Shown here in pieces: positions 3,829 to 25,025 of a stretch of 64,000 bases of DNA. This DNA comes from Cetobacterium sp. 2A (GTDB lineage: Bacteria > Fusobacteriota > Fusobacteriia > Fusobacteriales > Fusobacteriaceae): contig NZ_JACFAJ010000006.1 of assembly GCF_014250685.1 (NCBI RefSeq), forward strand, positions 1,014,501 through 1,078,500, read 5' to 3'. Both the position numbers and the translations under genes were made by a program. Under the pieces are notes generated by a model. The model worked only from the letters and a program-made list of their open reading frames with translations. It searched no databases and was not told where the DNA came from. Numbering within the stretch: the stretch's first letter is position 1; each line of letters starts with the position of its first letter.

Positions 3829-4488
3829 TTATTCTCCTTTTTGTAATTTTAAATTTTCCATTTCAAAACTCATTTTAGTAAGGAAAAGTGTAGTTAAAAA
3901 TGGATTTTCATCTATTGGAAGATTGAAGAAGCAATAAAGAATTTTTTCCACTAAATCTTGATTTTCTGGAGTTGAATTTTTTGACATTTTAAATAAAAGT
4001 TTGAATATTTTAATGATAGATTCTTCTCTAGAAAATAAATCATTGATTCCTTTTCTTAAAATATCGTTTATATCAGCATTGGGATCTTTATCTAATCTAC
4101 TTTTTATTTCTTTAGCGTAGTCTGAAGTTATTTTATAAGAGTTATTAAAATCAAAAAGTTGAATATTTTCAAATATAAATGTATTTATGTCTAATAATAT
4201 GATATCTAAATCAGTATGTGGTAAAAATTCAAATAGTTTATCGTGAGTTTTTTCAAAATGCATTGTTATTTTATCAGATTGATCCGTGTAATTAACTAAA
4301 GAAACAATCTTATCATCTTTTAATTTATTAATAATACCAGAGATTAACTGCTTATCAATTTCAATTTTTTCCTGTAAATCTTGCAAAGAGAAAGAAATAT
4401 CTGCTGATTCATTTTTTAAATTAGGAACTAAAAGCCCTTTAAGTAGGTTAAAAAAGACAAGTTCCTCGGATTTTAATATCGTGTCCAT
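3829..4488 (-). CDS. Hypothetical protein upstream of the histidine phosphatase
   Basis: This 219-residue soluble protein is not one I recognise. Residues about 30-70 (ending ISGIINKLKDDKIVSL) have the look of a winged helix-turn-helix, resembling replication-initiator or MarR-like wings, followed by a mostly helical C-terminal part. There is no catalytic motif, signal peptide or membrane span. On the minus strand a GGGGGAA ribosome site precedes its ATG, and the gene is divergent from kdsB with about 105 bases between them. A DNA-binding role is possible but only weakly supported. Confidence 0.75.
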   Translation of the reverse strand: MDTILKSEELVFFNLLKGLLVPNLKNESADISFSLQDLQEKIEIDKQLISGIINKLKDDKIVSLVNYTDQSDKITMHFEKTHDKLFEFLPHTDLDIILLDINTFIFENIQLFDFNNSYKITSDYAKEIKSRLDKDPNADINDILRKGINDLFSREESIIKIFKLLFKMSKNSTPENQDLVEKILYCFFNLPIDENPFLTTLFLTKMSFEMENLKLQKGE

Positions 4489-4593: not shown

Positions 4594-5331
4594 ATGAAAT
4601 TTTTAGGAATTATTCCAGCAAGATACGCATCAACTAGATTAGAAGGTAAACCATTAAAAGATATTTGTGGACACACAATGATAGAGTGGGTTTATAAAAG
4701 AGCTTTAAACTCGAATTTAGATAGAGTTATTGTTGCGACAGATGATCAAAGAGTCTATGAAGAAGTGAAAAGGTTTGGTGGAGAGGTAGTTTTGACTGAT
4801 AAAAGTCACCAAAATGGAACGAGTAGGATAGCCGAAGTATGTGGAAATATATCTGATTTTGATGTTGTAATAAATATACAAGGAGATGAGCCTTTAATAG
4901 AAGGAGAAATGATAAACTCCTTAATAGAAGTTTTTAATAAAGAACCTGATTTAAAAATGGCAACTTTAAAACATAAGATAGATGAAATGGAAGAGATTAA
5001 AAATCCAAATGTAGTAAAAGTTGTAACAGATAAAAAAGATTATGCAATTTATTTTTCAAGAAGTATAATACCTTATCCGAGAGAATTAAATATGGATAAT
5101 TATTATAAACATGTTGGGATATATGCATATAAAAGAGAGTTTGTAATAGAATATTCAAAAATGGAAGCAACTCCACTTGAGAAATCTGAATCGCTAGAAC
5201 AACTTAGAGTTATAGAAAATGGTTATAAAATAAAAGTTTTAGAAACTCCCTATAAAGTTGTTGGAGTAGATACAGCCGAAGAGTTAGAAAGGGTTAGAGA
5301 AATTATAAAGTTAGAAAAGATTACTATATAA
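4594..5331 (+). CDS. kdsB: 3-deoxy-manno-octulosonate cytidylyltransferase KdsB
   Basis: KdsB makes CMP-Kdo from CTP and Kdo for addition to lipid A. The 245-residue length is standard. The N-terminal IPARYASTRLEGKPL block binds CTP, and NIQGDEPLIEGEMI is the conserved metal/nucleotide motif. YKHVGIYAYKREF and the TPLEKSESLEQLR block complete the family signature. AGGAGG lies 8 bases before the ATG. The gene is followed after 20 bases by the SpoIID-like lipoprotein gene, which is probably in the same transcript. Confidence 0.97.
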   Translation: MKFLGIIPARYASTRLEGKPLKDICGHTMIEWVYKRALNSNLDRVIVATDDQRVYEEVKRFGGEVVLTDKSHQNGTSRIAEVCGNISDFDVVINIQGDEPLIEGEMINSLIEVFNKEPDLKMATLKHKIDEMEEIKNPNVVKVVTDKKDYAIYFSRSIIPYPRELNMDNYYKHVGIYAYKREFVIEYSKMEATPLEKSESLEQLRVIENGYKIKVLETPYKVVGVDTAEELERVREIIKLEKITI

Positions 5332-5351: not shown

Positions 5352-6929
5352 ATGGGAAAGAAATTATGTATAATAGGTATAGTATGCCTAATAATGGGAT
5401 GTAGTAGTACAGAACGAAATAAAAATACCTATGATGATATGTATGCCAAAAACAATTTATCTAATTCAAGTTCAGATAAAAATAAAGGGTTGGATAGAAT
5501 TTCATTTTTCGAAAAATATAATTATCCAGAAGGAAAATTTTATATAGCAACAAGAAATGAGTACTTATCGGCTAATAATGATAATAGTGCTAAGAAAAAA
5601 TATTTTCAATCAGACGATGAAAAAGAATTTTTAAAATTTTACAAAAATTTAGATATAAGAGGTTATGGTGATAATTCTGGATATTGGAGATGGAATTTTT
5701 CACTTACTCACAAAGAATTAAACTCAATTTTAAATAAAAATTTGCCAATAGTTGCTAAAAATAGATCGAAAGATATTCTAACATTAGTTGATAATAAATG
5801 GCAAATTCAAGAAGTACCTCTAAATCCAATTGGAAACTTAAGTGAAATAAAAGTTATGGAAAGAGGTAAATCTGGAATAATAATAAAATTACTGATAAAG
5901 GGAAGTAGAGGAACTTATTTGATAGCCAGAGAGCACAATATTAGAGGCTTAATAAGTTTAAATAAAAATACAGTAGGAAGAGAAGTAAATATTTATGGAG
6001 CAAATGGTGCGGCAAAAGAGTACTCACAAAAACCGATATCTAGAAATCCAAATTTACTTCCATCTGGATACTTTGCCTTTGAAAAAAAAGCATCAACTTA
6101 TAATTTCTATGGTGGCGGATATGGACACGGAGTTGGGATGTCTCAATGGGGAGTTGCCGATTTAACTAAAAATTATGGATATAGCTATAAAGCTGTTTTG
6201 CATAGATATTATAAATCTGTTAAATTAGAAAATATGTATAATCTTCCAGGAGTTGGGAAAACGATTCGTGTTGGAATAATGACGACAAGTTTTAAAAGCT
6301 TAGATCATGACAAAGTAGTATTGAGCTCTGGTAGTTCAATTAAAATAAAAAATAGTAAAATAAGTTTAGAAGCTAAACCTAGAGAAAAAGTTGAATTTAT
6401 AAATAAAAATGGACAGATAAAAATATTTATAGCTGGGAAACAAAAAGCTATAACAAAAGAGAAAATTGAAATAACTAGTTCTAAAGCAATGATATCTGTA
6501 AATTCAATAAAAAGAAATATAAAGAAAATTAGTTCACCTTCGTATAGAGGAAGTTTTGAAGTAAGATTATCAAAAAATGAGAATAAACTAAGATTGATAA
6601 ATGAAGTTGATATAGAGCAATATCTTCTTCAAGTTCTTCCAAGTGAGATGCCTGAAAGTTTTGGATTAGAGGCATTGAAAGTTCAAGCTGTTGCAGCTAG
6701 AACATATGCACTAAGTGATTATCAAAAAGGAAGATATTTAAAAGATGGCTTTCATATAACTGATAGTACACAAAGTCAAGTTTATAATAATTTAGATGAA
6801 AATCCTAAATCGAGACAAGCGATAAGTATGACTAAAGGTGAGGTTATGACATACAAAAATAAACCTATAGATGCAAAGTATTATTCTACATCATCTGGCT
6901 ATGGTGCTGCAGCTCACAATGTTTGGTAG
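5352..6929 (+). CDS. SpoIID/LytB-family lipoprotein with swapped domain halves
   Basis: This 525-residue protein has a lipoprotein signal (hydrophobic core at residues 5-15, lipobox ending GC at Cys17), so it is probably anchored in the periplasm or outer membrane. The SpoIID/LytB family includes lytic transglycosylases acting on denuded peptidoglycan glycan. All the family's blocks are present, but the order is inverted. The half that normally ends the protein comes first (YWRWNFSLTHKEL at about 113-125, GHGVGMSQWG at 258-267). The half that normally begins it follows (IRVGI at 305-309, LPSEMP at 429-434 with putative catalytic Glu432, AVAARTYAL at 446-454, STSSG at 512-516). The protein stops at NVW, exactly where an ordinary SpoIID would continue into its second half. 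This looks like a circular permutation rather than a truncation. An AAAGGAG ribosome site precedes the ATG. Confidence 0.88.
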   Translation: MGKKLCIIGIVCLIMGCSSTERNKNTYDDMYAKNNLSNSSSDKNKGLDRISFFEKYNYPEGKFYIATRNEYLSANNDNSAKKKYFQSDDEKEFLKFYKNLDIRGYGDNSGYWRWNFSLTHKELNSILNKNLPIVAKNRSKDILTLVDNKWQIQEVPLNPIGNLSEIKVMERGKSGIIIKLLIKGSRGTYLIAREHNIRGLISLNKNTVGREVNIYGANGAAKEYSQKPISRNPNLLPSGYFAFEKKASTYNFYGGGYGHGVGMSQWGVADLTKNYGYSYKAVLHRYYKSVKLENMYNLPGVGKTIRVGIMTTSFKSLDHDKVVLSSGSSIKIKNSKISLEAKPREKVEFINKNGQIKIFIAGKQKAITKEKIEITSSKAMISVNSIKRNIKKISSPSYRGSFEVRLSKNENKLRLINEVDIEQYLLQVLPSEMPESFGLEALKVQAVAARTYALSDYQKGRYLKDGFHITDSTQSQVYNNLDENPKSRQAISMTKGEVMTYKNKPIDAKYYSTSSGYGAAAHNVW

Positions 6930-7016: not shown

Positions 7017-7664
7017 ATGAAAGATACGGATAAAAAAAATAAAATATTGCGGGCAGCAAAAAAACATATTTTACAAAAAGGGTATTGTAAAGCGAGTATT
7101 TCAGAAATAACTGAAAGTATAGGAATAGCGAAAGGAAGTTTTTATACCTATTATAGCTCGAAAGATGAGTTGCTTGCAGAGATTATTGAAGAGACAATAG
7201 GAAACCGTGAAGAACGGTTCCAAAAGATGATAGATAAATCGGAAACATTGGAAGATGCAATAAATGGATATTTAAGACAATTATTTTGTATTGAAGCTAA
7301 GAGATTAGAAAATATAATTATCCTACTAAATCTTGCTAGAAATATTGATGCTATTCCTCAAGAATTAAAACAACGTCTTATGGAATTTGAAAAAGTAGAC
7401 AAAAAAATATTAAAAAAAATTCTTAAAAAGTTTTCATCTGAAGTTGGTGATTTAGAAGAAGAGGACTCAGATAGAATTGTAATTTTTATAAATGGTGGAA
7501 TAAGGTCTTTCAAAAGAGAAAGAATATTCTATAGTAAAAGTGCAGATTTCTTTGTTAAAGACATAGAGGAAGCACAGTCTAGAATAGACAAAATAGATTT
7601 TGAAAAAGAGATAGAAATTATATCTTTAAACATTATAAGAGTACTTAAGGGAGGAAGAATATGA
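7017..7664 (+). CDS. TetR/AcrR family transcriptional repressor
   Basis: This 215-residue TetR-family regulator has its DNA-binding domain at residues about 7-52, ending in the recognition helix and conserved tail GIAKGSFYTYYSSKDELL. The C-terminal domain is divergent, as expected for a ligand-binding region. It is the first gene of the efflux operon: its TGA overlaps the tolC ATG (ATGA), so it is cotranscribed with the pump. Two matching palindromes (6946-6961 and 6979-6996) sit at the operon promoter, so autorepression with release by a pump substrate is the natural model. That model is inference from arrangement and family precedent such as AcrR. Confidence 0.93.
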   Translation: MKDTDKKNKILRAAKKHILQKGYCKASISEITESIGIAKGSFYTYYSSKDELLAEIIEETIGNREERFQKMIDKSETLEDAINGYLRQLFCIEAKRLENIIILLNLARNIDAIPQELKQRLMEFEKVDKKILKKILKKFSSEVGDLEEEDSDRIVIFINGGIRSFKRERIFYSKSADFFVKDIEEAQSRIDKIDFEKEIEIISLNIIRVLKGGRI

Positions 7665-8917
7665 AAAAGTTACTGGGCGCTCTATTATTACTATCAGCAT
7701 CTGTATTTGCTAGAGAGCTAACACTACAAGAAGCTATCGATTTAGCCTTAATTAACAGCAAAGCTATTAAATCTTCAGAATTATCAAAGGAGAACTCAAG
7801 TTTACAAATTAAGTCAGCATTTAAAACTGCTCTACCAAGTGTAGTTTACAATGGGACATATCAAAAATCTGAATACGGAAGAAAGATTGATGGTCAAGAG
7901 AATCTAAGGTCAGGTTATCAGCAGACAATTGGTATATATCAACCCTTATTCCAAGGTGGGACAATCATGGCCGGAATAATGGGCGCTAAAGCTGGAAAGA
8001 ATATTGCAAATTATCAGTATCTTTCACAAGTTAGAGACATTAGATTGGAGACGATTCAAACGTTTTCAAAAATAGTTAAACTTCAGAAAGACTTAACTGT
8101 TTTAGAAAGTTCAAAAAAAGAGTTGGAAGTAAATTATAATAAACAAAAAGCGCAGCTAGATATGAGACTTATAACAAAAGCTGATCTTTTAAAAACAGAA
8201 TATAGTATATTAGATTTAGATTCAAGTATTACAGCTGCTAAAAATCAAATTGCTATTGAAAAAACAAATTTAAAAGTAAATTTAATGATACCAGAAAATG
8301 AAAAGCTTATAGTAAAAGATTTTGAAGTTCCAAATAATCTTTTACAAGGAGTAAACTTTGAGATAGATTTAACAAATGCTATGTCAAATAGCTTATCAGC
8401 AAGAATAGCCAAAAGTCAGGTTGAAGTATCAAAAGCACAAAAAATTGCAGCAGCAGCAGATTTCTATCCTCAGGTAGAAGCTTTTGCAAAATATGGTGGA
8501 GTTGAAACAAAAAAGTTTAATTCTTCTTATGAAGATGCTGACTGGATTGGTGGAGTAAGTGTATCATGGAATATGTTTGAATTTGGAAAAGGAATTGACG
8601 ATTATAATATTTCAAAAAATAATGTTAAAATTCAACAGTTAAGTGAACAGACGACGGTGGATAATATTGAAATAAACGTTACATCTAATTATTTAGAAGT
8701 TGTTAGATTTGAATCACTTAGAGTTTCAACAAAGAAAGCTTTAGAAGCAGCTCAAGAGAACTTTAAAATTGATACAGAAAGATACAATGCTGGACTTATT
8801 TCAACTGTGGATTATTTGATTTCAGAAACACAGATGAGACAAGCAGCGGTTATTTATAACCAAGCGAATATAGATTATTTAGTTGCATTTGAAACATATA
8901 GATCAAGCTTGATTTAA
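7661..8917 (+). CDS. TolC family outer-membrane efflux protein
   Basis: This 418-residue outer-membrane channel of the TolC/OEP family forms the exit duct of the tripartite pump encoded here. It has a cleavable signal peptide (residues 1-17, ending SVFA). It shows the two-fold OEP repeat: LTLQEAIDLALINSKAIK at the N-terminus and a matching helical block in the second half. YNAGLISTVDYLISETQMRQA near the C-terminus matches the conserved RYxaGxxsxldlLxaqtxL motif. AGGGAGGAAG precedes the ATG. The adaptor gene follows after 16 bases. Confidence 0.94.
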   Translation: MKKLLGALLLLSASVFARELTLQEAIDLALINSKAIKSSELSKENSSLQIKSAFKTALPSVVYNGTYQKSEYGRKIDGQENLRSGYQQTIGIYQPLFQGGTIMAGIMGAKAGKNIANYQYLSQVRDIRLETIQTFSKIVKLQKDLTVLESSKKELEVNYNKQKAQLDMRLITKADLLKTEYSILDLDSSITAAKNQIAIEKTNLKVNLMIPENEKLIVKDFEVPNNLLQGVNFEIDLTNAMSNSLSARIAKSQVEVSKAQKIAAAADFYPQVEAFAKYGGVETKKFNSSYEDADWIGGVSVSWNMFEFGKGIDDYNISKNNVKIQQLSEQTTVDNIEINVTSNYLEVVRFESLRVSTKKALEAAQENFKIDTERYNAGLISTVDYLISETQMRQAAVIYNQANIDYLVAFETYRSSLI

Positions 8918-8933
8918 ATTTTAGGAGGACATA

Positions 8934-10007
8934 ATGAAAAAATATTTATATTTAGTGCTTGTCGCAGGAATGGCTTTTACTGCTTGTGGGAAGAAAAGCA
9001 ATACAGATGAAAAGGTAGAGATTATACCTAAAAATGTAGTAGTAGAATCGGTTAAATTAAATGATATTTCAGATATTTATAAAAGTGATGCAACAATAGT
9101 TCCTGCAGATAAAGTAAACCATAGTTTAGATGGAATTGGAACTGTTAAAAAAGTTTATAAAAAGAACGGAGAAGCTGTTGATAAGGGAGAAGTTGTAGTA
9201 GTTATGACTGATTCAAAGACAGAATCTGATTACTCAAGAGCAAAGGCAAATTTAGCTTCTGCAAAATCAAATTTAGCAATAGCTACAAATAACTATAAAA
9301 AACATAAGAGTCTTTATGAAAAAGAAATGGTTTCAGAATTAGAATTTTTAGATTACAAAAATAGATTTATAGATGCAGAAGGAAATCATGAAGCTAAAAA
9401 AGCTGAGTTTGAAAATGCTAAAGATAAATATGAAAAATTAACAAGAAAAGCTGAAACATCAGGTGTAGTAGGAAATCTTTACTTAAAACCTGGAAATGAG
9501 GTCAAAGAAAAAGAAAACTTATTTACTGTTGTAAATGAACAAGAAATGGAAGTTATAGTAGATTTTCCTGGAAAATGGTTCAATAGAGTTACTATTGGTT
9601 CTCCAGCCTATGTAGAAATTTCAGATTTAGGAAAAAAAGAATTAAAAGGATATATTAAGGAAATTAATCCAGTTGCAACTCCAGAAACAAGAAAGTTTCC
9701 AGTGACAATTAGAATTCCAAATTTAAGTGGAAATATGAAAGATGGAATGTATGGAAAAGTAAATATTCCAGCTGGAAAAAGAGAAACTTTAGTTGTTCCT
9801 CAAGAAGCAGTATTTGTAAGAGACTTATTAAGTTATGTGTTCATAGTTGAAGATTCTAAAGCAAAAAGGGTAGAAGTAAAAACTGGTGCAATAGAAGAGC
9901 CAATGATTGAAATCACTACAGATAATTTAAAGCCTGGAAATGAAGTTATTGTCGAAGGACTATTTGGTCTTGAAGATGGAGATTTAATAAATATAGAGAA
10001 AAAATAG
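8934..10007 (+). CDS. RND efflux periplasmic adaptor lipoprotein (HlyD/MFP family)
   Basis: This 357-residue membrane-fusion protein bridges the inner-membrane pump and TolC. The signal ends in the lipobox FTAC (Cys19), so it is a lipoprotein like AcrA. The order is a lipoyl half (GTVKKVYKKNGEAVDKGEVV), a coiled-coil hairpin (about residues 95-155, rich in Ala/Lys/Glu), the second lipoyl half (SGVVGNLYLKPGNEV), a beta-barrel domain and a membrane-proximal domain (VPQEAVFVRD). Length and domain order are normal. It lies between tolC and the pump gene with short gaps. Confidence 0.94.
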   Translation: MKKYLYLVLVAGMAFTACGKKSNTDEKVEIIPKNVVVESVKLNDISDIYKSDATIVPADKVNHSLDGIGTVKKVYKKNGEAVDKGEVVVVMTDSKTESDYSRAKANLASAKSNLAIATNNYKKHKSLYEKEMVSELEFLDYKNRFIDAEGNHEAKKAEFENAKDKYEKLTRKAETSGVVGNLYLKPGNEVKEKENLFTVVNEQEMEVIVDFPGKWFNRVTIGSPAYVEISDLGKKELKGYIKEINPVATPETRKFPVTIRIPNLSGNMKDGMYGKVNIPAGKRETLVVPQEAVFVRDLLSYVFIVEDSKAKRVEVKTGAIEEPMIEITTDNLKPGNEVIVEGLFGLEDGDLINIEKK

Positions 10008-10027
10008 ACTGGATGAGGTGAAGAATA

Positions 10028-13000
10028 ATGTCATTAGCTGGAATAGCCATACGTAGGCCAGTAGCTACAACTATGTTAATGGTTTCAATGGTATTTATAG
10101 GGATAGTATCTATGATGTCAATGAAATCAGAATTATTACCAAATATGAATATTCCTATCGTAATGGTAAGTACAACATGGCAAGGAGCAGTGCCACAAGA
10201 TATAGAAACACAAGTAACAAAGAAAATAGAAGATACACTTTCAAATGTAGATGGAATAAAACAAATCAGGTCTACATCATCTTTTGCAAATTCCCAAGTA
10301 CTTATAGAGTTTGACTATGGAGTAGACATAAATACAAAAAAAGGGGATGTACAAAAGGAAGTAGATGCAATAAAGGGAGATTTACCAGCCAGTGCTGATG
10401 ACCCTTCTGTAAAAAAAATACAAGCTGGAGCTGGAAACCTAACAATGATGGTAAATGTTTCGGGACCTAATTTGCTTGAAGTAAATACATTTGTAAATGA
10501 ATTTATGAAACCTAGATTTGAAAGAATAAAAGGAGTAGGAACTGTTGATGTAACTGGTTCTGCCGATAAACAAGTTCAAATTCAAATAGATTCTGATAAA
10601 CTTTCTGCTTATAATATGACTCCAATTGAACTATATGACCTGATTAAAGGGTCTAGTTTAAACGTTCCTCTTGGTGTAATAAATACAGGCGGGAAAGAGA
10701 TAGTTGCTAGATTTATGGGAGAAATAAACTACTTAGATGAGTATAAAAATATGATCATAAGAAGTAATGGTCAAACTTTGAGACTTAAAGATGTAGCAAC
10801 CATAGTTTTAACAACTGAAGATCCAGAAAATTCAACTAAAATGAATGGAAAACAAGCTGTAAGTATAAGTATTGAAAAATCAGCCGATGGAAATACTATA
10901 GATATCGCAGATGCTGCAAAAAAATCTATAAATGAAATGAAAGCATATCTACCTCCTGGAGTTAATATTGATATAATAATGGATTATTCTACTGATATCA
11001 ATTCAGCTATTTCAGGAGTTAAAGGAAATGCTGTAACGGGACTTGTACTTGCAAGTATAATCTTAATGGTCTTTCTTAAAAACTTTAGAGCTACACTACT
11101 TATATCTTTAGCACTTCCAATTGCGATAATGTTTACGTTTGTATTCCTTGCTTCTCAAGGTGTTACAATAAATGTTATCTCACTTATGGGATTATCAATC
11201 GGAGTAGGAATGCTAACGGATAACTCGGTTGTTGTTATAGATAATATATATAGACATATAACTGAACTAAAAAAACCAGTAATAGAAGCTGCAGAAGATG
11301 GAGCAACAGAGGTTACAATAGCTATTATCGCATCTGCACTTACAACAATGGTTGTATTTATACCAGTGTTATTTATACCAGGAATTGCTAGAGAGATATT
11401 TAGAGATATGTCTTTTGCAATTATATTCTCAAACGTTGCAGCACTTATAGTATCATTAACTCTTATGCCAATGGTTGCGAGTAGATTCTTAAAAAGTAAC
11501 GTTGATATAACAAAAGAGGGGAAAATATTCTCATTAGTTAAGACTAATTATATAAAATTAATTGGTTGGGCTGTAAAAAATAAGATTAAAACAGTTGGAG
11601 TAGCATTTGGATTATTTATAGTTATGATGATTGTTGGTTCAAAAGCCACTAAAACAAAATTCTTACCAGATCAAGATTTCGGTAAGTTTGGAATTATTTT
11701 AGAGTTACCAAAAGGATTGAGTTTAGAAACTTCAGAAGCAATTGCTAAAAAAGCTGAAGATATTGTTAAAGCTAATCCTAATACTGTAGCATATACAACT
11801 CTTACTGAGAAAAATATTATAATACTAAACGTTGATATCGGTGAAAAATCTGAAAGAGACGTATCAATGTTTAAGATAATGGAAGATTTAAGACCTACGG
11901 TTGGAAATATTAGAGATACAAAACTGAATATAAAACCAAACTTCCAAAGTAAAGCTCCTGAAAGAGATGTTGAGATGAGAATTACTGCGGAAAACTTGGA
12001 GACTGCTAGAGAAATTGCAAGAAAAATTCAAGATAAAATATCAACAAATCCAAAGATTATAGATATTAAGTCTACACTGGATCCTGGAAATACAGAGGCA
12101 AGAGTAGTTCTTCATAGAGATAAGCTACGTTCTTATGGAATGAACCCAGCAGATTTAGGAAGAACAATAAGTTACTCATTCCTTGGTGGAAATAGAGGTA
12201 AAGGTGAAACTGTAACAGTTAAAACTGGAACAGAAGAGATAGATGTTTTAGTTAGATTATCAGATAAAGATAGAAAGAAAATGTCAAGTCTTGAGCAATT
12301 AAATGTAAGAACAGCAGATGGAAAATTTATTAAAGTTTCTGACGTAGCTGATATAACTATGGCTGAAGGAGCTTCTGAAATAAATAAAGTTGATAAAATT
12401 TATTCTATTTCAATTGGAGCAAATGACGGTGGATTAGGACTTAGTGGAGTTCAAAAAGCTATGACAGATGCTTTTGAGGAATTAGATATTCCAAAAGGAG
12501 TTTCTTATACATGGGGTGGAAATTCACAAATGTTTAGTGATGCAATCATACAGATGGGAGCAGCATTACTAATTTCAATCTTCTTAATTTATGCAATACT
12601 TGCAGCACAATTTGAAAACTTTGTTCTACCTTTCATAATAATTGGTTCAGTACCTTTAGCTATGATTGGAGTTTATACAGGTCTGATTTTAACAGGACAA
12701 CCATTTGACTTAATGGTTATGATAGGGATAATCATGCTTGCTGGAACAGTTGTTAATAATGCCATAGTATTGATAGACTTTATAACGATACTAAGAGAAA
12801 GAGGAATGAGTGTTGACGAAGCAGTTCAGGAATCTTGTAAGACGAGACTTAGACCAATTATAATGACTACTATGACAACAGTATTTGGAATGATTCCTCT
12901 TGCGTTAGGATTAGGAGAAGGAGCAGAACTTTATTCTGGAATGTCAATAGCTGTTATATTCGGACTTTCATTCTCAACACTACTAACTCTTGTTGTAATT

Positions 13001-13087
13001 CCAGTTCTATACATGATTACTGAAGAAATGGGAGAAAAGGCTGGAAAAGCGTTTAAAAAAATATTTAAATTTAAAAAGAAAAAATAA
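10028..13087 (+). CDS. RND multidrug efflux permease (AcrB/SwrC-like, HAE1)
   Basis: This 1019-residue inner-membrane proton-driven pump shows the standard RND duplication: an N-terminal TM helix, a large periplasmic loop, six helices, a second periplasmic loop and five to six helices. The TM4 block reads GMLTDNSVVVIDNI, so the AcrB Asp407 equivalent is kept and the Asp408 equivalent is Asn. TM10 reads AGTVVNNAIVLIDFI without the AcrB Lys940. Both variants are usual in the SwrC/YerP branch found in Firmicutes-like lineages, so I do not treat them as loss of function. The substrate range cannot be read from sequence. It is the core of the tetR-tolC-adaptor-pump operon. Confidence 0.95.
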   Translation: MSLAGIAIRRPVATTMLMVSMVFIGIVSMMSMKSELLPNMNIPIVMVSTTWQGAVPQDIETQVTKKIEDTLSNVDGIKQIRSTSSFANSQVLIEFDYGVDINTKKGDVQKEVDAIKGDLPASADDPSVKKIQAGAGNLTMMVNVSGPNLLEVNTFVNEFMKPRFERIKGVGTVDVTGSADKQVQIQIDSDKLSAYNMTPIELYDLIKGSSLNVPLGVINTGGKEIVARFMGEINYLDEYKNMIIRSNGQTLRLKDVATIVLTTEDPENSTKMNGKQAVSISIEKSADGNTIDIADAAKKSINEMKAYLPPGVNIDIIMDYSTDINSAISGVKGNAVTGLVLASIILMVFLKNFRATLLISLALPIAIMFTFVFLASQGVTINVISLMGLSIGVGMLTDNSVVVIDNIYRHITELKKPVIEAAEDGATEVTIAIIASALTTMVVFIPVLFIPGIAREIFRDMSFAIIFSNVAALIVSLTLMPMVASRFLKSNVDITKEGKIFSLVKTNYIKLIGWAVKNKIKTVGVAFGLFIVMMIVGSKATKTKFLPDQDFGKFGIILELPKGLSLETSEAIAKKAEDIVKANPNTVAYTTLTEKNIIILNVDIGEKSERDVSMFKIMEDLRPTVGNIRDTKLNIKPNFQSKAPERDVEMRITAENLETAREIARKIQDKISTNPKIIDIKSTLDPGNTEARVVLHRDKLRSYGMNPADLGRTISYSFLGGNRGKGETVTVKTGTEEIDVLVRLSDKDRKKMSSLEQLNVRTADGKFIKVSDVADITMAEGASEINKVDKIYSISIGANDGGLGLSGVQKAMTDAFEELDIPKGVSYTWGGNSQMFSDAIIQMGAALLISIFLIYAILAAQFENFVLPFIIIGSVPLAMIGVYTGLILTGQPFDLMVMIGIIMLAGTVVNNAIVLIDFITILRERGMSVDEAVQESCKTRLRPIIMTTMTTVFGMIPLALGLGEGAELYSGMSIAVIFGLSFSTLLTLVVIPVLYMITEEMGEKAGKAFKKIFKFKKKK

Positions 13088-18850: not shown

Positions 18851-19804
18851 ATGAAAAGAATATTATTTATGATTTCGATAACTATTGGAGTTTTGTTAAG
18901 TGGATACTTATATTATACTAATGAAGTGGGAAAGAAAAGAAGTTTTAATAAAATCTTAGAGATAAAAAGAGGAGAACCTTTAAAAAAGTCTTTAGAGTGT
19001 TTGGAGATTGAAAATAATATTCCTTTAAAAATTTATATAAAGAGTAGAAATAACGGAAAAGATATAAAGGCTGGATATTATGAAATAAAAGGAGAATATT
19101 CTTACGCTGAACTAATAGAAATTTTAGAATCTGGCAAACAAAAGGTATTTAAATTTACAGTTCCAGAAGGATATTCAATAGAGAATATAATAGAAGTACT
19201 AGAAAGAGATGGAAGAGGAAGTAAGGAAAACTTTAAATTAGCACTAAGTCAAATTGAAGATTTTCCATATCCTACTCCTAATAAAAATTTTGAAGGATAT
19301 TTATATCCAGAAACATATTTTTTAGCTGAGAACTCAACTGAAAAAGATATTGTGAATAAAATGTTAAAAGAATTTCTTAGAAAATTTCCAGTTGAAAAAT
19401 ATCCAGATAAAGAAGATTTTTATCAAAAGCTCATTATGGCTTCAATACTTGAAAGAGAAGCTCAGGTTAAATCTGAGAAGATAGTGATGGCATCTGTATT
19501 TTATAATAGAATGAAAAGAGGAATGACTCTTTCATCGGATGCAACAGTGAATTTTTTATACAATTATAAGAAGAAAAGAATGTATTACAAGGATTTGGAA
19601 ATAGATTCACCTTATAATACTTATAAATATAAAGGTTTACCACCAGCTCCTATTGCCAATCCAGACTACGAATCTGTAATGGCAGCCTATAATCCAGCTA
19701 CAACAGATTATCTATTCTTTGTGGCTATAGGAGATGGGAGTCACTACTTTAGTAAAACTTATAGAGAGCATCTAGAAATACAAAAAAAGAATAGTAAAAA
19801 ATAA
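18851..19804 (+). CDS. mltG: Endolytic murein transglycosylase MltG
   Basis: MltG cleaves nascent peptidoglycan glycan strands in the periplasm and helps set strand length. The protein is 317 residues with an N-terminal membrane anchor (residues 4-22) and a YceG-type domain. The conserved ASILEREAQ motif (about residues 198-206) includes the catalytic Glu. YNRMKRGMTLSSDATVNF and SPYNTYKYKGLPPAPIANPD are further family signatures. Length is near that of other MltG proteins. The radical SAM gene follows 10 bases later. Confidence 0.95.
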   Translation: MKRILFMISITIGVLLSGYLYYTNEVGKKRSFNKILEIKRGEPLKKSLECLEIENNIPLKIYIKSRNNGKDIKAGYYEIKGEYSYAELIEILESGKQKVFKFTVPEGYSIENIIEVLERDGRGSKENFKLALSQIEDFPYPTPNKNFEGYLYPETYFLAENSTEKDIVNKMLKEFLRKFPVEKYPDKEDFYQKLIMASILEREAQVKSEKIVMASVFYNRMKRGMTLSSDATVNFLYNYKKKRMYYKDLEIDSPYNTYKYKGLPPAPIANPDYESVMAAYNPATTDYLFFVAIGDGSHYFSKTYREHLEIQKKNSKK

Positions 19805-19814
19805 GGAGATAAAA

Positions 19815-21470
19815 TTGAAGAAAATAATTTTAGTTGGAATAAATAGTCAGTATATCCATACGAATTTAGCTATTAGATATTTAAAATCATACGTTGAAAA
19901 ATATAGTGATTTAAAGATTGAGTTATATGAGAGTAATATAAATAGTCAAATTTTAACTATAATAAGAGAAATATGTGAGTTGTCACCGGATAAGTTAATA
20001 TTTTCTACTTATATTTGGAATAAGGAATATGTATTCAAAATAATAAAAGAGATAAAAAAAATATTACCAAAAGTTGAGATATCTTTAGGAGGTCCAGAAG
20101 TAACTTACGACTGTGAAAAGTTGCTGGAGGAAAGATCAGAACTGGATTATTTATTAGTTGGAGAGGGAGAGAGAGTTTTTCTTAATTTTTTAACAAAAGA
20201 AATCTCAGATGTTAAGGGAGTATATTATAGAAATAATGGAAAAATAGAATATAATGGAGATGAAAATCCAATTGAAAATTTGGACGAAATTCCCTTTCCA
20301 TATACTGAAGAAGAGTTGAAATATGAGAAAAAAATAGTATATTATGAATCTTCGAGAGGTTGTCCTTTTAGTTGTTCTTATTGCTTATCGTCTATAGACA
20401 AAGGGGTTAGATATTTTTCTTTAGAAAGAACGAAGGAAGATTTAAAAAAGTTTTTAGATACTGACATAAATTTAATTAAATTTGTAGATAGAACTTTTAA
20501 TTTAAGAAAAGATAGATATTTAGGAATTTGGAAATTTTTACTAGAGAACTATAAAGAGGGAGTAACTTTCCATTTTGAAATAAATGCAAATATTTTTGAT
20601 GAAGAGATAATTGAATTTTTAAAAACAGTTCCTAAAGATTATTTCCAATTTGAAATAGGAGTTCAAAGTATAAATAAAAATACAATGGATAGTATAAATA
20701 GAAGAAATTTATTAGAAAGATTATCTAATAACGTAAGAGCAATCACAAAAAATATACATCTTCATTTAGATTTGATAGCTGGATTACCTCATGATACGTA
20801 TGAAACTTTCAAATCATCATTTAATTATGTTTATGATTTGAAGCCAGAAATGGTTCAGTTAGGATTTTTAAAGATTTTAAAAGGAACAAAAATCTCAAAA
20901 GAAATAGAACAATATCAGTATAAATATATAGAGTTTCCACCATATGAGATTTTATCCAATGAATTTATAAGTTATGAACAGATTGTAAAACTTAAAGATT
21001 TTGAAAAGATGTTGGACTTTTATTATAACTCTGAAAAGTTTTCAAAGTCTGCTGACTATATAATAAAAAATTTATATGGAGCGCCATTTGATTTTTTTGA
21101 AGATATAGCCAGTTTTTATAAGGTTAAAGGGTATATATCAATTGGTCATAAGGAAACGAGTCTTTTTAATATCCTAGTAGAGTTTTATAAGTTTAAAAAA
21201 TTTGATAATTACGATATATTTATTGAATACCTTAAATATGATTTCTTATGTTTAGGAAAACCAGGAATGTATCCAGAATGGTTTATATCTAGTAAAGATA
21301 AAGATAAGCATAACTTGATGTTAGAAAAATTAGATTTTAAAAGTAGTAGAGAAGCTTATAAAAATACAGAGATAGAAACTTTTAAATATAATGTTTTAGA
21401 TAATACTAAAGAAAATGTAGATATATTCTTTGAATATAGAAAAAAAATGACTAAAACTACTGTTTGTTAA
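19815..21470 (+). CDS. B12-binding domain radical SAM protein with DUF4080
   Basis: This 551-residue protein has three parts. The first is an N-terminal cobalamin-binding-like Rossmann domain (residues about 1-130). The second is a radical SAM core with the 4Fe-4S motif CPFSCSYC at about residues 187-194. The third is a C-terminal DUF4080 region, which is where the family assignment comes from. Members are common in Firmicutes and Fusobacteriota and are uncharacterised; a methyltransferase or other radical chemistry is possible. The start is a TTG at 19815 with AAGGAGA upstream. The gene ends about 60 bases before tilS. Confidence 0.9.
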   Translation: MKKIILVGINSQYIHTNLAIRYLKSYVEKYSDLKIELYESNINSQILTIIREICELSPDKLIFSTYIWNKEYVFKIIKEIKKILPKVEISLGGPEVTYDCEKLLEERSELDYLLVGEGERVFLNFLTKEISDVKGVYYRNNGKIEYNGDENPIENLDEIPFPYTEEELKYEKKIVYYESSRGCPFSCSYCLSSIDKGVRYFSLERTKEDLKKFLDTDINLIKFVDRTFNLRKDRYLGIWKFLLENYKEGVTFHFEINANIFDEEIIEFLKTVPKDYFQFEIGVQSINKNTMDSINRRNLLERLSNNVRAITKNIHLHLDLIAGLPHDTYETFKSSFNYVYDLKPEMVQLGFLKILKGTKISKEIEQYQYKYIEFPPYEILSNEFISYEQIVKLKDFEKMLDFYYNSEKFSKSADYIIKNLYGAPFDFFEDIASFYKVKGYISIGHKETSLFNILVEFYKFKKFDNYDIFIEYLKYDFLCLGKPGMYPEWFISSKDKDKHNLMLEKLDFKSSREAYKNTEIETFKYNVLDNTKENVDIFFEYRKKMTKTTVC

Positions 21471-21496
21471 AAAAGGTTTTAAAAAAAAACTGGATA

Positions 21497-21505
21497 TGTT
21501 ATAAT
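21497..21505 (+). promoter_or_regulatory. Extended -10 promoter before tilS
   Basis: TGT-TATAAT at 21497-21505 is a good extended -10, 30 bases before the tilS ATG. The -35 region is only an A/T run. Confidence 0.6.
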
Positions 21506-21534
21506 TCTATCAAACTGTTTAATAGAGGGAATTG

Positions 21535-22863
21535 ATGAAAATATTTAAAAGAGTTTTAGAAAAAATAAATAGAGAATTTCTTCTTCAAGAGGGAGATAAA
21601 ATAGTTCTTGCTTTTTCAGGAGGACCTGATTCAGCATTTTTACTTGAAATGTTACTAGAGTTAAAGAAAACTTTAAACTTCGAAATAGTACTTGCTCATA
21701 TAAATCATTTATTACGTGGGAAAGATTCTGATGGAGATGAGGATTTTGTTAGAAGAATTGGAAAAAAATATGGAATTGAAGTCTATATAAAAAGAGTTGA
21801 TATAACAAAAGAAGGAAAAGAAAAAGGTCTTGGTTTAGAAGAAGCAGGAAGAGAAGCAAGATATAACTTTTTTGATGAAGTTCTTAAAGAAATAGATGGG
21901 AATAAAGTGGCTTTAGCACATAATCTTGATGATCAAATAGAAACGTTTCTTTTTAGATTAATGAGAGGAACATCGCTAGAAGGATTAGAAGGGATAAATA
22001 GTAAAGGAAAATATATAAGACCAATAAATGAACTTTACAAAAGTGAGATTATGGAGTATTTAAATAATAGAGAACTAGAGTACAGAATAGATTCTACAAA
22101 TTTTGAAAATGAATTTACAAGAAATAGTATCAGATTGGATTTAATTCCTTTTATTGAAAATAGATATAATCCAAATTTTAAGGATAAAATTTTTACTACA
22201 ATAAAAGAAATAAGAGATGTAAATAACCTATTAAAAATAGATTATGAAGATTATTTTGATGAAGGATTCCTATCTGTAAAAAAAATGGAAAAGGAAAGTA
22301 ATTACATTCAAAGTAAGATAATCAATAGTTATTTAAATAATTATTCCATAAAAGTTTCAAGAGATAAAATATTAGGAATATTAAAATTTTTAAGTAGTTG
22401 TGGAAGTAAAGAATTTAAATTGAGTAAAAATCTTGTCTTGAAAAAAGAATATGATAAAATATTTGTAAAAGACAATAGTGTAGAAGTTTCAATTAGTCAA
22501 GAATTTAAGGAGTTAAAAGTTCCTGGGAAGATTGAATTTGGAAATTATTTATTAGAAGCTTTTGAAGCTGAAAAAGATTCAAAATTAAAAAATGAGTTCT
22601 TAACTAATTTAAATGTCGGAGATATACTTACAGTTAGAAAAAGAGAAAACGGAGATAAGATTATTCCAACTGGCATGAAAAATAGTAAAAAAGTCAAAGA
22701 TATTCTAATCAATGAAAAAATTCCAAAAGATATGAGAGATGATATTCCAATTGTCGTTTTTAATGATGAGGTTATTTGGATTGCGGGTGTAAGAGGAAAC
22801 GAAAATTACAAAGCTTCAAAAAATGGGATAAGACTAAAGTTAAGTACAAGGAGGCAGAGTTAG
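21535..22863 (+). CDS. tilS: tRNA(Ile)-lysidine synthase TilS
   Basis: TilS converts C34 of the AUA-reading tRNA-Ile to lysidine and is essential in most bacteria. The protein is 442 residues with the N-type ATP-pyrophosphatase loop SGGPDS near residue 28, HINHLLRG and HNLDDQIETFLFRLMRG. A middle substrate-binding domain and a C-terminal TilS_C domain (LTVRKRENGDKIIPTGMKNS) follow. ATG at 21535 is preferred over TTG at 21532 because of spacing from GAGGGA. Its TAG shares a base with the GTG start of ftsH, a tilS-ftsH neighbourhood also seen in Firmicutes. Confidence 0.95.
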   Translation: MKIFKRVLEKINREFLLQEGDKIVLAFSGGPDSAFLLEMLLELKKTLNFEIVLAHINHLLRGKDSDGDEDFVRRIGKKYGIEVYIKRVDITKEGKEKGLGLEEAGREARYNFFDEVLKEIDGNKVALAHNLDDQIETFLFRLMRGTSLEGLEGINSKGKYIRPINELYKSEIMEYLNNRELEYRIDSTNFENEFTRNSIRLDLIPFIENRYNPNFKDKIFTTIKEIRDVNNLLKIDYEDYFDEGFLSVKKMEKESNYIQSKIINSYLNNYSIKVSRDKILGILKFLSSCGSKEFKLSKNLVLKKEYDKIFVKDNSVEVSISQEFKELKVPGKIEFGNYLLEAFEAEKDSKLKNEFLTNLNVGDILTVRKRENGDKIIPTGMKNSKKVKDILINEKIPKDMRDDIPIVVFNDEVIWIAGVRGNENYKASKNGIRLKLSTRRQS

Positions 22864-25025
22864 TGATAAGTCTATATGGAAAAGATGAGGATCTAATTAA
22901 ATTAGTTGATAACAACGAGGAAAAAAAGGAAGAGAATCCAAAAGAAGAAGAGCCAAAAAAAGAAGATTCAAAAGATGGTTATGATGAATTGGGTGAAAGA
23001 AAAAAAGAGTTAAAAGCTAAGCTGAAACATGGACTTAGAAAAGGAAGAGGTTCATCGGATGATGAAGATGATGAAGATGACGACGACGATTCAAATGGAA
23101 ATGGACCAAAAAGAGAAAAAGGTGGGAAATTTAATTTTAAAGGTTTCATAATGTTATTATTTGTAATAACTTTATTTATGTCTTTACCATCGTTATTTAG
23201 TGATAGTAGTAAATCTAATTTAAAGGATATAAGTTACACTGAGTTTTTAAAACTGGCAGAGGACAAAACAATAAAATCTGTGGATGAAAAAGAAGGTTAT
23301 GTTTTTGGATATACTTCTGAAACTGATAAAACTGGTTATAAAACAAGAATGATAACTGATAGATTAGGAGGAGATCCTAATTTAGTAAATGTTTTAGAAT
23401 CAAATGGAGTTAAAGTTCAATCAGTTCCACCTCAAGAATTACCATTCTTATTAAATATTTTAGTATCTTGGTTCCCAATGCTTCTATTGATAGGGGTATG
23501 GATATTTATGCTAAATAAAATGAATAAGGGTGGAGGCGGAGGACCTCAAATATTTAATATGGGGAAATCTAGAGCTAAAGAAAACGGAGAAGAAATTTCA
23601 AAAGTTACATTTAAAGATGTAGCTGGAATAGATGAGGCAAAAGTGGAGTTGGAAGAAGTAGTTCAATTCTTAAAAGAGCCTGAAAAGTTTAAAAAAATAG
23701 GAGCCAAGATTCCTAAAGGAGTTCTTTTATTAGGAGCACCAGGAACAGGAAAAACACTTCTTGCTAAAGCTGTTGCTGGAGAGGCTGGAGTTCCATTCTT
23801 TAGTATGTCTGGATCTGAATTCGTTGAAATGTTCGTTGGAGTTGGAGCTTCAAGAGTAAGAGACTTATTCAATAAAGCTAGAAAAAATGCACCTTGTATA
23901 ATATTTATAGATGAAATTGATGCTGTAGGTAGAAAAAGAGGAAGTGGACAAGGTGGAGGAAATGATGAGAGAGAACAAACTCTTAATCAATTACTAGTTG
24001 AAATGGATGGATTTGGTACTGATGAAACTATAATTGTTTTAGCGGCTACAAATAGACCTGAAATTTTAGATAAAGCTCTTATGAGACCTGGAAGATTTGA
24101 TAGACAGGTTGTTGTAGATAGACCAGATATAAAAGGTAGAGAAGAAATTTTAAAGGTTCACTCAAGAGGGAAAAAATTCGCTGAAGATGTTAATTTCCAC
24201 GTTGTTGCTAGAAAAACTCCAGGATTTGTAGGGGCAGATATAGCTAACTTATTAAACGAGGCTGCAATACTTGCTGCAAGAGCAGGAAGAGACGAAATCA
24301 ATATGTCTGACTTAGAGGAAGCTTCTGAAAAAGTAACTATAGGTCCAGAGAGAAAATCAAGAGTAACTGTACAAAAAGAAAGAGTGATTGTTGCTTATCA
24401 CGAAGTTGGACATGCTGTTACTCAAAAGTTATCACCAAATACGGAGCCTGTACATAAAGTTACAATCATTCCTAGAGGAATGGCAGCGCTTGGATATACG
24501 ATGACTTTACCAACTGAAGATAGATACCTAAAATCTAAAAATGAATATCTTTCTGAATTAGTAACTCTTCTAGGTGGAAGAGCGGCTGAAGAGGTTGTAT
24601 TTGGAGATATAACAACAGGTGCAAGTAATGATATTGAAAGAGCCACTGCTATAGCTCATGCTATGGTAACAAAATTTGGTATGAGTGAAAAATTTGGGCC
24701 GATACTTTTAGATAATACTCATGAAGGAGACATGTTCCAACAGAAGTATTATGGAGAAACTACTGCAAAAGAAGTAGATGATGAAATTAGAAGTCTAGTT
24801 AGTAACGCTTATATAACAGCTAAAAATATTTTAAGAGATAATAGAGAAGTATTTGAAAAAATAGCTAAAGAACTTCTGGAAAGAGAAACTATTACAGGTG
24901 AAGAGTTAGATATTATGTTAAGAGGAGAGGAATTAGAACCTTTAAAACCACTTCCTCAAGCCGCAAAAGTAGAGTCTGCTGTAGAATTGGATAAGACTTT
25001 ACAGGATGAAGGAACTGTGATATAA
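22863..25025 (+). CDS. ftsH: ATP-dependent zinc metalloprotease FtsH
   Basis: FtsH is a membrane-bound AAA+ protease that degrades misfolded membrane proteins and regulators. The chosen GTG at 22863 lies 9 bases after a perfect AGGAGG and gives 720 residues. After an unusual charged N-terminal extension (about residues 1-90, with a run of Asp/Glu near 66-76) come TM1 (about 94-111), a periplasmic domain and TM2. Then follow the AAA domain with GAPGTGKT (291-298), [15 protein letters not shown] and the SRH, and the zinc site HEVGH (His513, Glu514, His517). A reading from 22776 would add residues overlapping tilS and bypass the ribosome site. Confidence 0.96.

What the first reader, a model, noticed from the sequence alone, without database searches (positions are those of the whole stretch)
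5352..6929. Circularly permuted SpoIID/LytB lipoprotein
In Bacillus SpoIID and its relatives the order is a strand-rich start, SEMP with the catalytic Glu, ARTY/ARTF, STSxG, a DVW-like stretch, then a W-x-(W) block and finally GHGVGMSQ near the C-terminus. Here GHGVGMSQWG (residues 258-267) comes first and LPSEMP (429-434), AVAARTYAL and STSSG (512-516) come last. The protein stops at NVW, the natural junction between the halves, and its N-terminal half picks up where that junction would continue. A lipoprotein signal precedes it. No block is missing, so this is a swap of halves, not a truncation. Tandem duplication followed by loss of the outer halves would produce it. I do not know whether this arrangement has been described.
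Basis: partly seen in the sequence, partly recalled or inferred. Interest (0 to 1): 0.72.

Follow-up and report, generated by a model that had tools for sequence, protein, structure and literature searches.

The report
Circularly permuted SpoIID wall-cutting lipoprotein
A cell-wall enzyme found across bacteria (SpoIID) has its front and back halves swapped in one branch of the Fusobacteriaceae that includes human Fusobacterium; the swapped version, related to clostridial proteins, stands in place of the branch's original copy, so it is a real and apparently undescribed natural rearrangement of a known enzyme.

Summary
Confirmed and extended. The ORF 5352-6929 encodes a lipoprotein whose SpoIID halves are swapped end to end. 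Rotating it at residue ~300 raises its alignment score to canonical clostridial SpoIID from 395 to 653 (shuffles at most 63), collinear to the exact canonical C-terminus. It is no assembly error: 46 genes in 44 genomes of eight Fusobacteriaceae genera have this order, as do Fusobacterium vincentii and animalis; the catalytic Glu and GHG are invariant and 43 of 45 aligned sequences end at the same Trp. Canonical order was found everywhere else checked (33 Fusobacteriota, 53 Bacillota long-form loci, 85 viral proteins). Phylogeny places the permuted clade (support 0.999) inside a Bacillota 'long-form' SpoIID subfamily, away from native fusobacterial SpoIID. The native gene (YceG-DUF4080-spoIID-tilS-ftsH) is missing from all eight permuted genera tested, while the permuted gene sits 3' of kdsB; both sites lie in this window. 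Best reading: a clostridial-type SpoIID was acquired, permuted once, became a lipoprotein and displaced the resident gene. Enzymatic function is inferred. Structure predictions were too poor to test packing. No paper describing it was found in the library searched.

The parts
5352..6929 (+). Permuted SpoIID/LytB lipoprotein gene, 525 aa
   Evidence: PF08486 and TIGR02669 above their cut-offs
5352..5402 (+). Lipoprotein signal peptide, lipobox IMGC, lipidated Cys17 (lipidation inferred)
   Evidence: sequence; Cys in 42 of 42 homologues with a residue aligned
5403..5519 (+). Variable spacer between the lipid anchor and the fold (residues 18 to about 56)
   Evidence: A1; length variable among homologues
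5520..6245 (+). Canonical C-terminal half placed first (residues 57-298)
   Evidence: residues 78-298 align to 400-625 of Paenibacillus L032 (125 bits), which lie after that protein's N-half
6123..6152 (+). GHGVGMSQWG motif (258-267)
   Evidence: G258, H259, G260, G262, Q265 invariant in 45 of 45
6240..6266 (+). Fusion joint of old C-terminus and old N-terminus (residues 297-305)
   Evidence: canonical clostridial L133 ends ...KKLY exactly opposite Y296; Y287-R306 interval constant in 43 of 45
6267..6926 (+). Canonical N-terminal half placed last (residues 306-525), containing PF08486 (410-501)
6645..6647 (+). Catalytic Glu432 (equivalent of C. difficile SpoIID E101)
   Evidence: alignment; invariant 45 of 45
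6879..6881 (+). Tyr510 (equivalent of C. difficile SpoIID Y194, needed for activity)
   Evidence: alignment; PMC6934232; Y in 41, F in 3
6924..6929 (+). C-terminal Trp525 and stop: new C-terminus, inside the canonical 'DVW' stretch
   Evidence: terminal W in 43 of 45
4594..5331 (+). kdsB, immediately upstream (20-bp gap), probably co-transcribed
   Evidence: kdsB directly precedes the permuted gene in all eight permuted genera, in every permuted locus except the two extra paralogues of genus g11 (L085, L091)
21471..21531 (.). Vacant native spoIID site between the DUF4080 gene (19815-21470) and tilS (21532-22863)
   Evidence: canonical spoIID occupies this position in non-permuted Fusobacteriaceae; absent here and in seven other permuted genera

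Best explanation
This is a circularly permuted SpoIID-family glycan-strand-cutting enzyme (lytic transglycosylase/muramidase type), anchored as a lipoprotein in the diderm envelope. SHOWN by sequence: the complete canonical set of blocks is present in rotated order; the old termini are fused through a short joint of nearly constant length; the chain is reopened just after the conserved Trp of the 'DVW' stretch; motif residues from both halves are retained; the arrangement is fixed in one clade of eight Fusobacteriaceae genera. SUPPORTED by phylogeny and synteny: the gene descends from a Bacillota (clostridial-type) long-form SpoIID, appeared 3' of kdsB in the ancestor of that clade, and displaced the native spoIID, which was lost from the YceG-DUF4080-spoIID-tilS-ftsH cluster. 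INFERRED: the halves fold into the ordinary SpoIID hand/arm structure with Glu432 as catalytic acid and Tyr510 orienting the sugar; it cuts glycan strands, probably denuded ones left by an Amidase_3 enzyme, during division; the permutation moves the membrane tether from the old N-terminus to the loop after the conserved Trp.
For: Permutation-aware alignment improves for five of five targets and peaks at a cut near residue 297-303 for the close relatives (653 rotated against 395 unrotated for L133). Paenibacillus matches of 168 and 125 bits lie in opposite order. 44 genomes of eight genera have the permuted order (46 genes) and 33 others the canonical order, with no genome holding both. Permuted clade support 0.996-0.999, within the Bacillota long-form clade (0.996), sister to clostridial ~600-aa forms (0.921). 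The permuted genera are one clade in the rpoB tree (support 1.0) among canonical genera. kdsB linkage; kdsB of canonical genera lacks it. Native site vacant in 8 of 8 permuted genera tested. Glu432, GHG, Q265, H319, Q476, Y478 invariant in 45 sequences. Own genome has Amidase_3. Activity of SpoIID on peptidoglycan and denuded glycan in a non-sporulating bacterium: PMC6635528.
Against: No experimental or reliable structural evidence that the rotated chain folds as canonical SpoIID: both AlphaFold models were poor (pTM 0.41, 0.49) and Foldseek found nothing. No biochemical data. Branching order inside the permuted clade is only partly resolved in both the gene tree and the rpoB tree. 21 of 98 Fusobacteriota genomes, mainly of family f4, have no SpoIID at all, so the function is dispensable in the phylum.
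Confidence: 0.83

Rival explanations
1. The two halves are swapped in sequence but pair between molecules: the protein works as a domain-swapped dimer rather than as an intramolecular permuted monomer.
For: Sequence cannot tell the two apart; structure tests failed.
Against: The joint between the halves is short and nearly constant in length (18 residues between Y287 and R306 in 43 of 45), as expected if the old termini lie next to each other in the fold. The canonical L133 ends exactly at the joint.
Confidence: 0.1
2. A non-catalytic glycan-binding or amidase-enhancer protein (the LytB-type role) rather than a glycan-cutting enzyme.
For: The matched domain model is named SpoIID/LytB, and LytB-type members have been described as amidase enhancers (general knowledge, not checked here). 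An amidase is encoded in the genome.
Against: The equivalents of the catalytic Glu and of the activity-relevant Tyr are retained under strong conservation.
Confidence: 0.2
3. Assembly error or chimaera of two genes.
For: The genome is in 14 contigs with 5.5% reported contamination.
Against: Same order in 44 genomes from independent assemblies, including single-contig ones, with the same kdsB linkage; also an annotated 517-aa CDS in an F. animalis record.
Confidence: 0.005
4. The permutation arose in Bacillota, and Fusobacteriaceae received the gene already permuted.
For: The nearest relatives are clostridial and only part of Bacillota was sampled.
Against: No permuted form among the Bacillota matches of two searches of 399 and 227 genomes; all 53 long-form loci parsed by script are canonical.
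Confidence: 0.12

Closest known systems
SpoIID / stage II sporulation protein D (PF08486, TIGR02870; PDB 4RWR, 5I1T, 5TXU)
   Same: Same blocks: catalytic Glu in SEMP, ARTY, STSxG, W, GHGVGMSQ; two significant aligned stretches
   Different: Order of the two halves reversed; lipoprotein anchor; below the TIGR02870 equivalog cut-off (128.4 against 234.75 bits); no sporulation context
Bacillota long-form SpoIID/LytB proteins (clostridial ~600 aa; Paenibacillus 1830-1914 aa, L032/L033)
   Same: Closest relatives; collinear over both halves including the long C-terminal half of about 215-240 aa; 36% identity over 475 columns with L133
   Different: Canonical order; an N-terminal segment lies ahead of the N-half; some have extra domains
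Native fusobacterial SpoIID (YceG-DUF4080-spoIID-tilS-ftsH cluster)
   Same: Same family; the other SpoIID of Fusobacteriaceae, never found in the same genome
   Different: Canonical order, shorter C-half, signal peptide without lipobox in Fusobacteriaceae, separate clade
Waddlia chondrophila SpoIID (PMC6635528)
   Same: SpoIID in a non-sporulating bacterium; shown to bind peptidoglycan at the septum and to cut glycan strands
   Different: Not compared by alignment here; no permutation is mentioned in the passages read

Membership tests
SpoIID family (PF08486 / TIGR02669) | PF08486 domain above the curated cut-off | tested here: met
   98.9 bits against 23; TIGR02669 174.6 against 83.3; all 21 members scanned match
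SpoIID family (PF08486 / TIGR02669) | Catalytic Glu in the SEMP motif | tested here: met
   Glu432 invariant in 45 sequences
SpoIID family (PF08486 / TIGR02669) | GHGxGM(S)Q motif and C-terminal half present | tested here: met
   258-267; full C-half aligned
SpoIID family (PF08486 / TIGR02669) | N-half before C-half | tested here: not met
   reversed in all permuted homologues; hence filed as a topological variant, not an ordinary member
SpoIID family (PF08486 / TIGR02669) | Hand/arm fold | tested here: inconclusive
   models pTM 0.41 and 0.49
SpoIID family (PF08486 / TIGR02669) | Glycan-strand cleavage | not testable with these tools
   needs biochemistry
Sporulation SpoIID equivalog (TIGR02870) | Score above the equivalog cut-off | tested here: not met
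   128.4 against 234.75 bits; not a sporulation SpoIID
Circular permutation | Complete collinear alignment after one rotation, with both old termini joined and both new termini at one internal point | tested here: met
   joint and C-terminus statistics

The most novel reading that the evidence does not exclude
The permutation was selected because it moves the lipid tether from ahead of the arm half to a loop beside the catalytic hand, turning a clostridial enzyme into an outer-membrane-tethered one that could replace the resident periplasmic SpoIID: a natural case in which circular permutation itself re-aims a wall enzyme in a new type of envelope.
Probability: 0.3. Interest if true: 0.75.

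Novelty: new variant of a known kind. Interest (0 to 1): 0.62.

Why it matters
Natural circular permutations that can be polarised and linked to displacement of a resident gene are few, as far as I know. Here the ancestral type (clostridial canonical), the single event, the displaced native gene and its vacant site can all be read from genomes, and sister genera keep the old gene. That gives a ready comparison of permuted and canonical forms of one wall enzyme in close relatives. It also warns that domain annotation hides such cases: the Pfam model covers only one half, so databases call these proteins plain 'SpoIID/LytB'. The clade includes human-associated Fusobacterium (F. vincentii, F. animalis).

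Tried and rejected
Several local alignments were tried to get a usable A7 because MAFFT mixed the separate halves. Assembly error: rejected (44 genomes). A gene on the other strand: rejected (one search shows stops throughout). Phage origin: rejected; 0 of 85 viral SpoIIDs are permuted and the phage collection gave one weak hit. Descent from native fusobacterial SpoIID by internal rearrangement: disfavoured by the tree. Tandem-duplication intermediate: none noticed in the Bacillota hits. IQ-TREE bootstrap failed because of a thread limit, so supports are FastTree SH-like values. Weak FecR (PF04773) hit inside the SpoIID core ignored, below its cut-off. Literature: no paper holding SpoIID with circular permutation or circularly permuted, nor SpoIID with Fusobacterium, in the library searched.

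Full report
OBSERVATION. The ORF 5352-6929 (+) encodes 525 aa with a lipoprotein signal (MGKKLCIIGIVCLIMGC) and a good ribosome-binding site; the other strand is full of stops. PF08486 covers only 410-501. TIGR02669 (174.6 bits) matches in two stretches. Solved SpoIID chains 4rwr, 5i1t and 5txu match in two stretches in reversed order. It is the only PF08486 protein of this genome.

PERMUTATION TEST. Canonical relatives covering both halves exist: Paenibacillus proteins (L032, L033) align first to query 313-525 (168 bits for L032), then to 78-298 (125 bits). Rotating the query and aligning it to five canonical proteins raises the score in every case (395 to 653, 437 to 695, 322 to 593, 453 to 784, 211 to 272; shuffles at most 70), with the best cut at residues 297-303 for the close relatives. 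The rotated alignment to clostridial L133 runs from R306 through W525, then on to Y296, which meets the last residue of L133 (36% identity over 475 columns). Clostridial long forms often end ...(K/E)xxY or KLY at the joint, and their stretch after the Trp (VW...FPG...PYL) corresponds to the permuted N-terminal part (...YP......PYL). No block of the canonical protein is missing.

NOT AN ARTEFACT. In 98 Fusobacteriota genomes, 44 have the permuted form (46 genes), 33 the canonical form, 21 neither, none both. Permuted genomes include single-contig ones. In 45 aligned homologues Glu432, GHG, Q265, H319, R450, Q476 and Y478 are invariant; 43 end exactly at Trp525 and 43 have 18 residues between Y287 and R306. 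F. vincentii and F. animalis carry it. Two genomes of genus g11 have a second, diverged permuted paralogue away from kdsB.

ORIGIN. With the half-alignments concatenated in canonical order, permuted proteins are one clade (0.999), nested in Bacillota long forms (0.996) with clostridial ~600-aa forms as sister (0.921), apart from native fusobacterial SpoIIDs. Supports are FastTree SH-like; with the N-half alone the permuted clade still holds (0.907) but the sister group is unresolved. The permuted genera form one clade (1.0) in an rpoB tree, branching inside canonical genera. In Bacillota searches (399 and 227 genomes) no permuted order was seen, and all 53 long-form loci parsed are canonical; viral SpoIIDs 0 of 85. 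One permutation event in the stem of this clade is the simplest history; a donor already permuted is not excluded.

DISPLACEMENT. In canonical Fusobacteriaceae the native spoIID lies in a conserved cluster YceG/MltG-like - B12/radical-SAM DUF4080 - spoIID - tilS - ftsH. In this window the same cluster is at 18851-25025 with the spoIID missing: the DUF4080 stop is at 21470 and tilS starts at 21532-21535. The gene is likewise missing upstream of tilS in the seven other permuted genera tested. The permuted gene is directly 3' of kdsB in all eight permuted genera, while kdsB of five canonical genera has other downstream genes; the divergent upstream neighbour of kdsB is shared by four of them. Thus a gene of clostridial ancestry is now the only SpoIID while the native copy is lost. 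The order of gain and loss is not known.

FUNCTION. Catalytic E101 and Y194 of C. difficile SpoIID (PMC6934232) correspond to Glu432 and Tyr510 by the alignment. SpoIID of a non-sporulating bacterium binds septal peptidoglycan and cuts glycan strands (PMC6635528). The genome holds an Amidase_3 protein that could supply denuded glycan. Glycan cleavage near division is therefore the likely role, inferred and not shown. Lipidation at Cys17 would put the anchor mostly 40-60 residues before the conserved PYL segment, i.e. beside the loop after the conserved Trp instead of ahead of the arm half.

STRUCTURE. Intramolecular packing is therefore an inference from the short joint of constant length.

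NOVELTY. No paper with SpoIID and circular permutation, or SpoIID and Fusobacterium, was found (open-access library only). The protein has the blocks and motifs of the SpoIID family but fails its order feature: a new topological variant of a known enzyme.

Noticed in passing
window 18851-25025: YceG/MltG-like, DUF4080 radical-SAM, tilS and ftsH cluster from which the native canonical spoIID has been lost.
   Followed up: yes
L085 (5312-6922) and L091 (5057-6703): Two genomes of genus g11 carry a second permuted SpoIID paralogue not linked to kdsB; the one in L091 has lost the terminal Trp.
   Followed up: partly
L081 (5598-7151): In G051 (genus g12) the permuted ORF is interrupted by one TAG, a possible pseudogene or sequencing error.
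   Followed up: no
G514:C1:515686-517091: A clostridial long-form SpoIID split into two adjacent open frames (414 and 331 aa), N-half and C-half; possibly a frameshift.
   Followed up: no
L159-L188, L239-L316 (IMG/VR): Many viral contigs encode compact canonical SpoIID domains, often at the N-terminus of ~500-aa proteins; some may be phage lysins or host flanks.
   Followed up: partly
G000:C1:1290754, C3:40552, C5:8861: Three same-scoring 207-aa Amidase_3 genes on different contigs, probably mobile-element or prophage copies.
   Followed up: no
Fusobacteriota genera g18, g19, g21, g22, g24 (family f4): No SpoIID at all by PF08486 in these genomes, although relatives in the family keep a canonical form with a lipobox.
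   Followed up: partly
window 3829-4488 (-): Gene divergent from kdsB without any Pfam match; similar proteins lie beside kdsB in canonical Fusobacteriaceae.
   Followed up: partly
window 7017-13087: TetR, TolC-like, HlyD-like and RND pump genes downstream; linked to the permuted gene only in genera g1, g2 and part of g5.
   Followed up: no
NZ_CP084075.1 (L369): A 2.1-Mb replicon of F. vincentii is labelled a plasmid in PLSDB but has the size of a chromosome.
   Followed up: no
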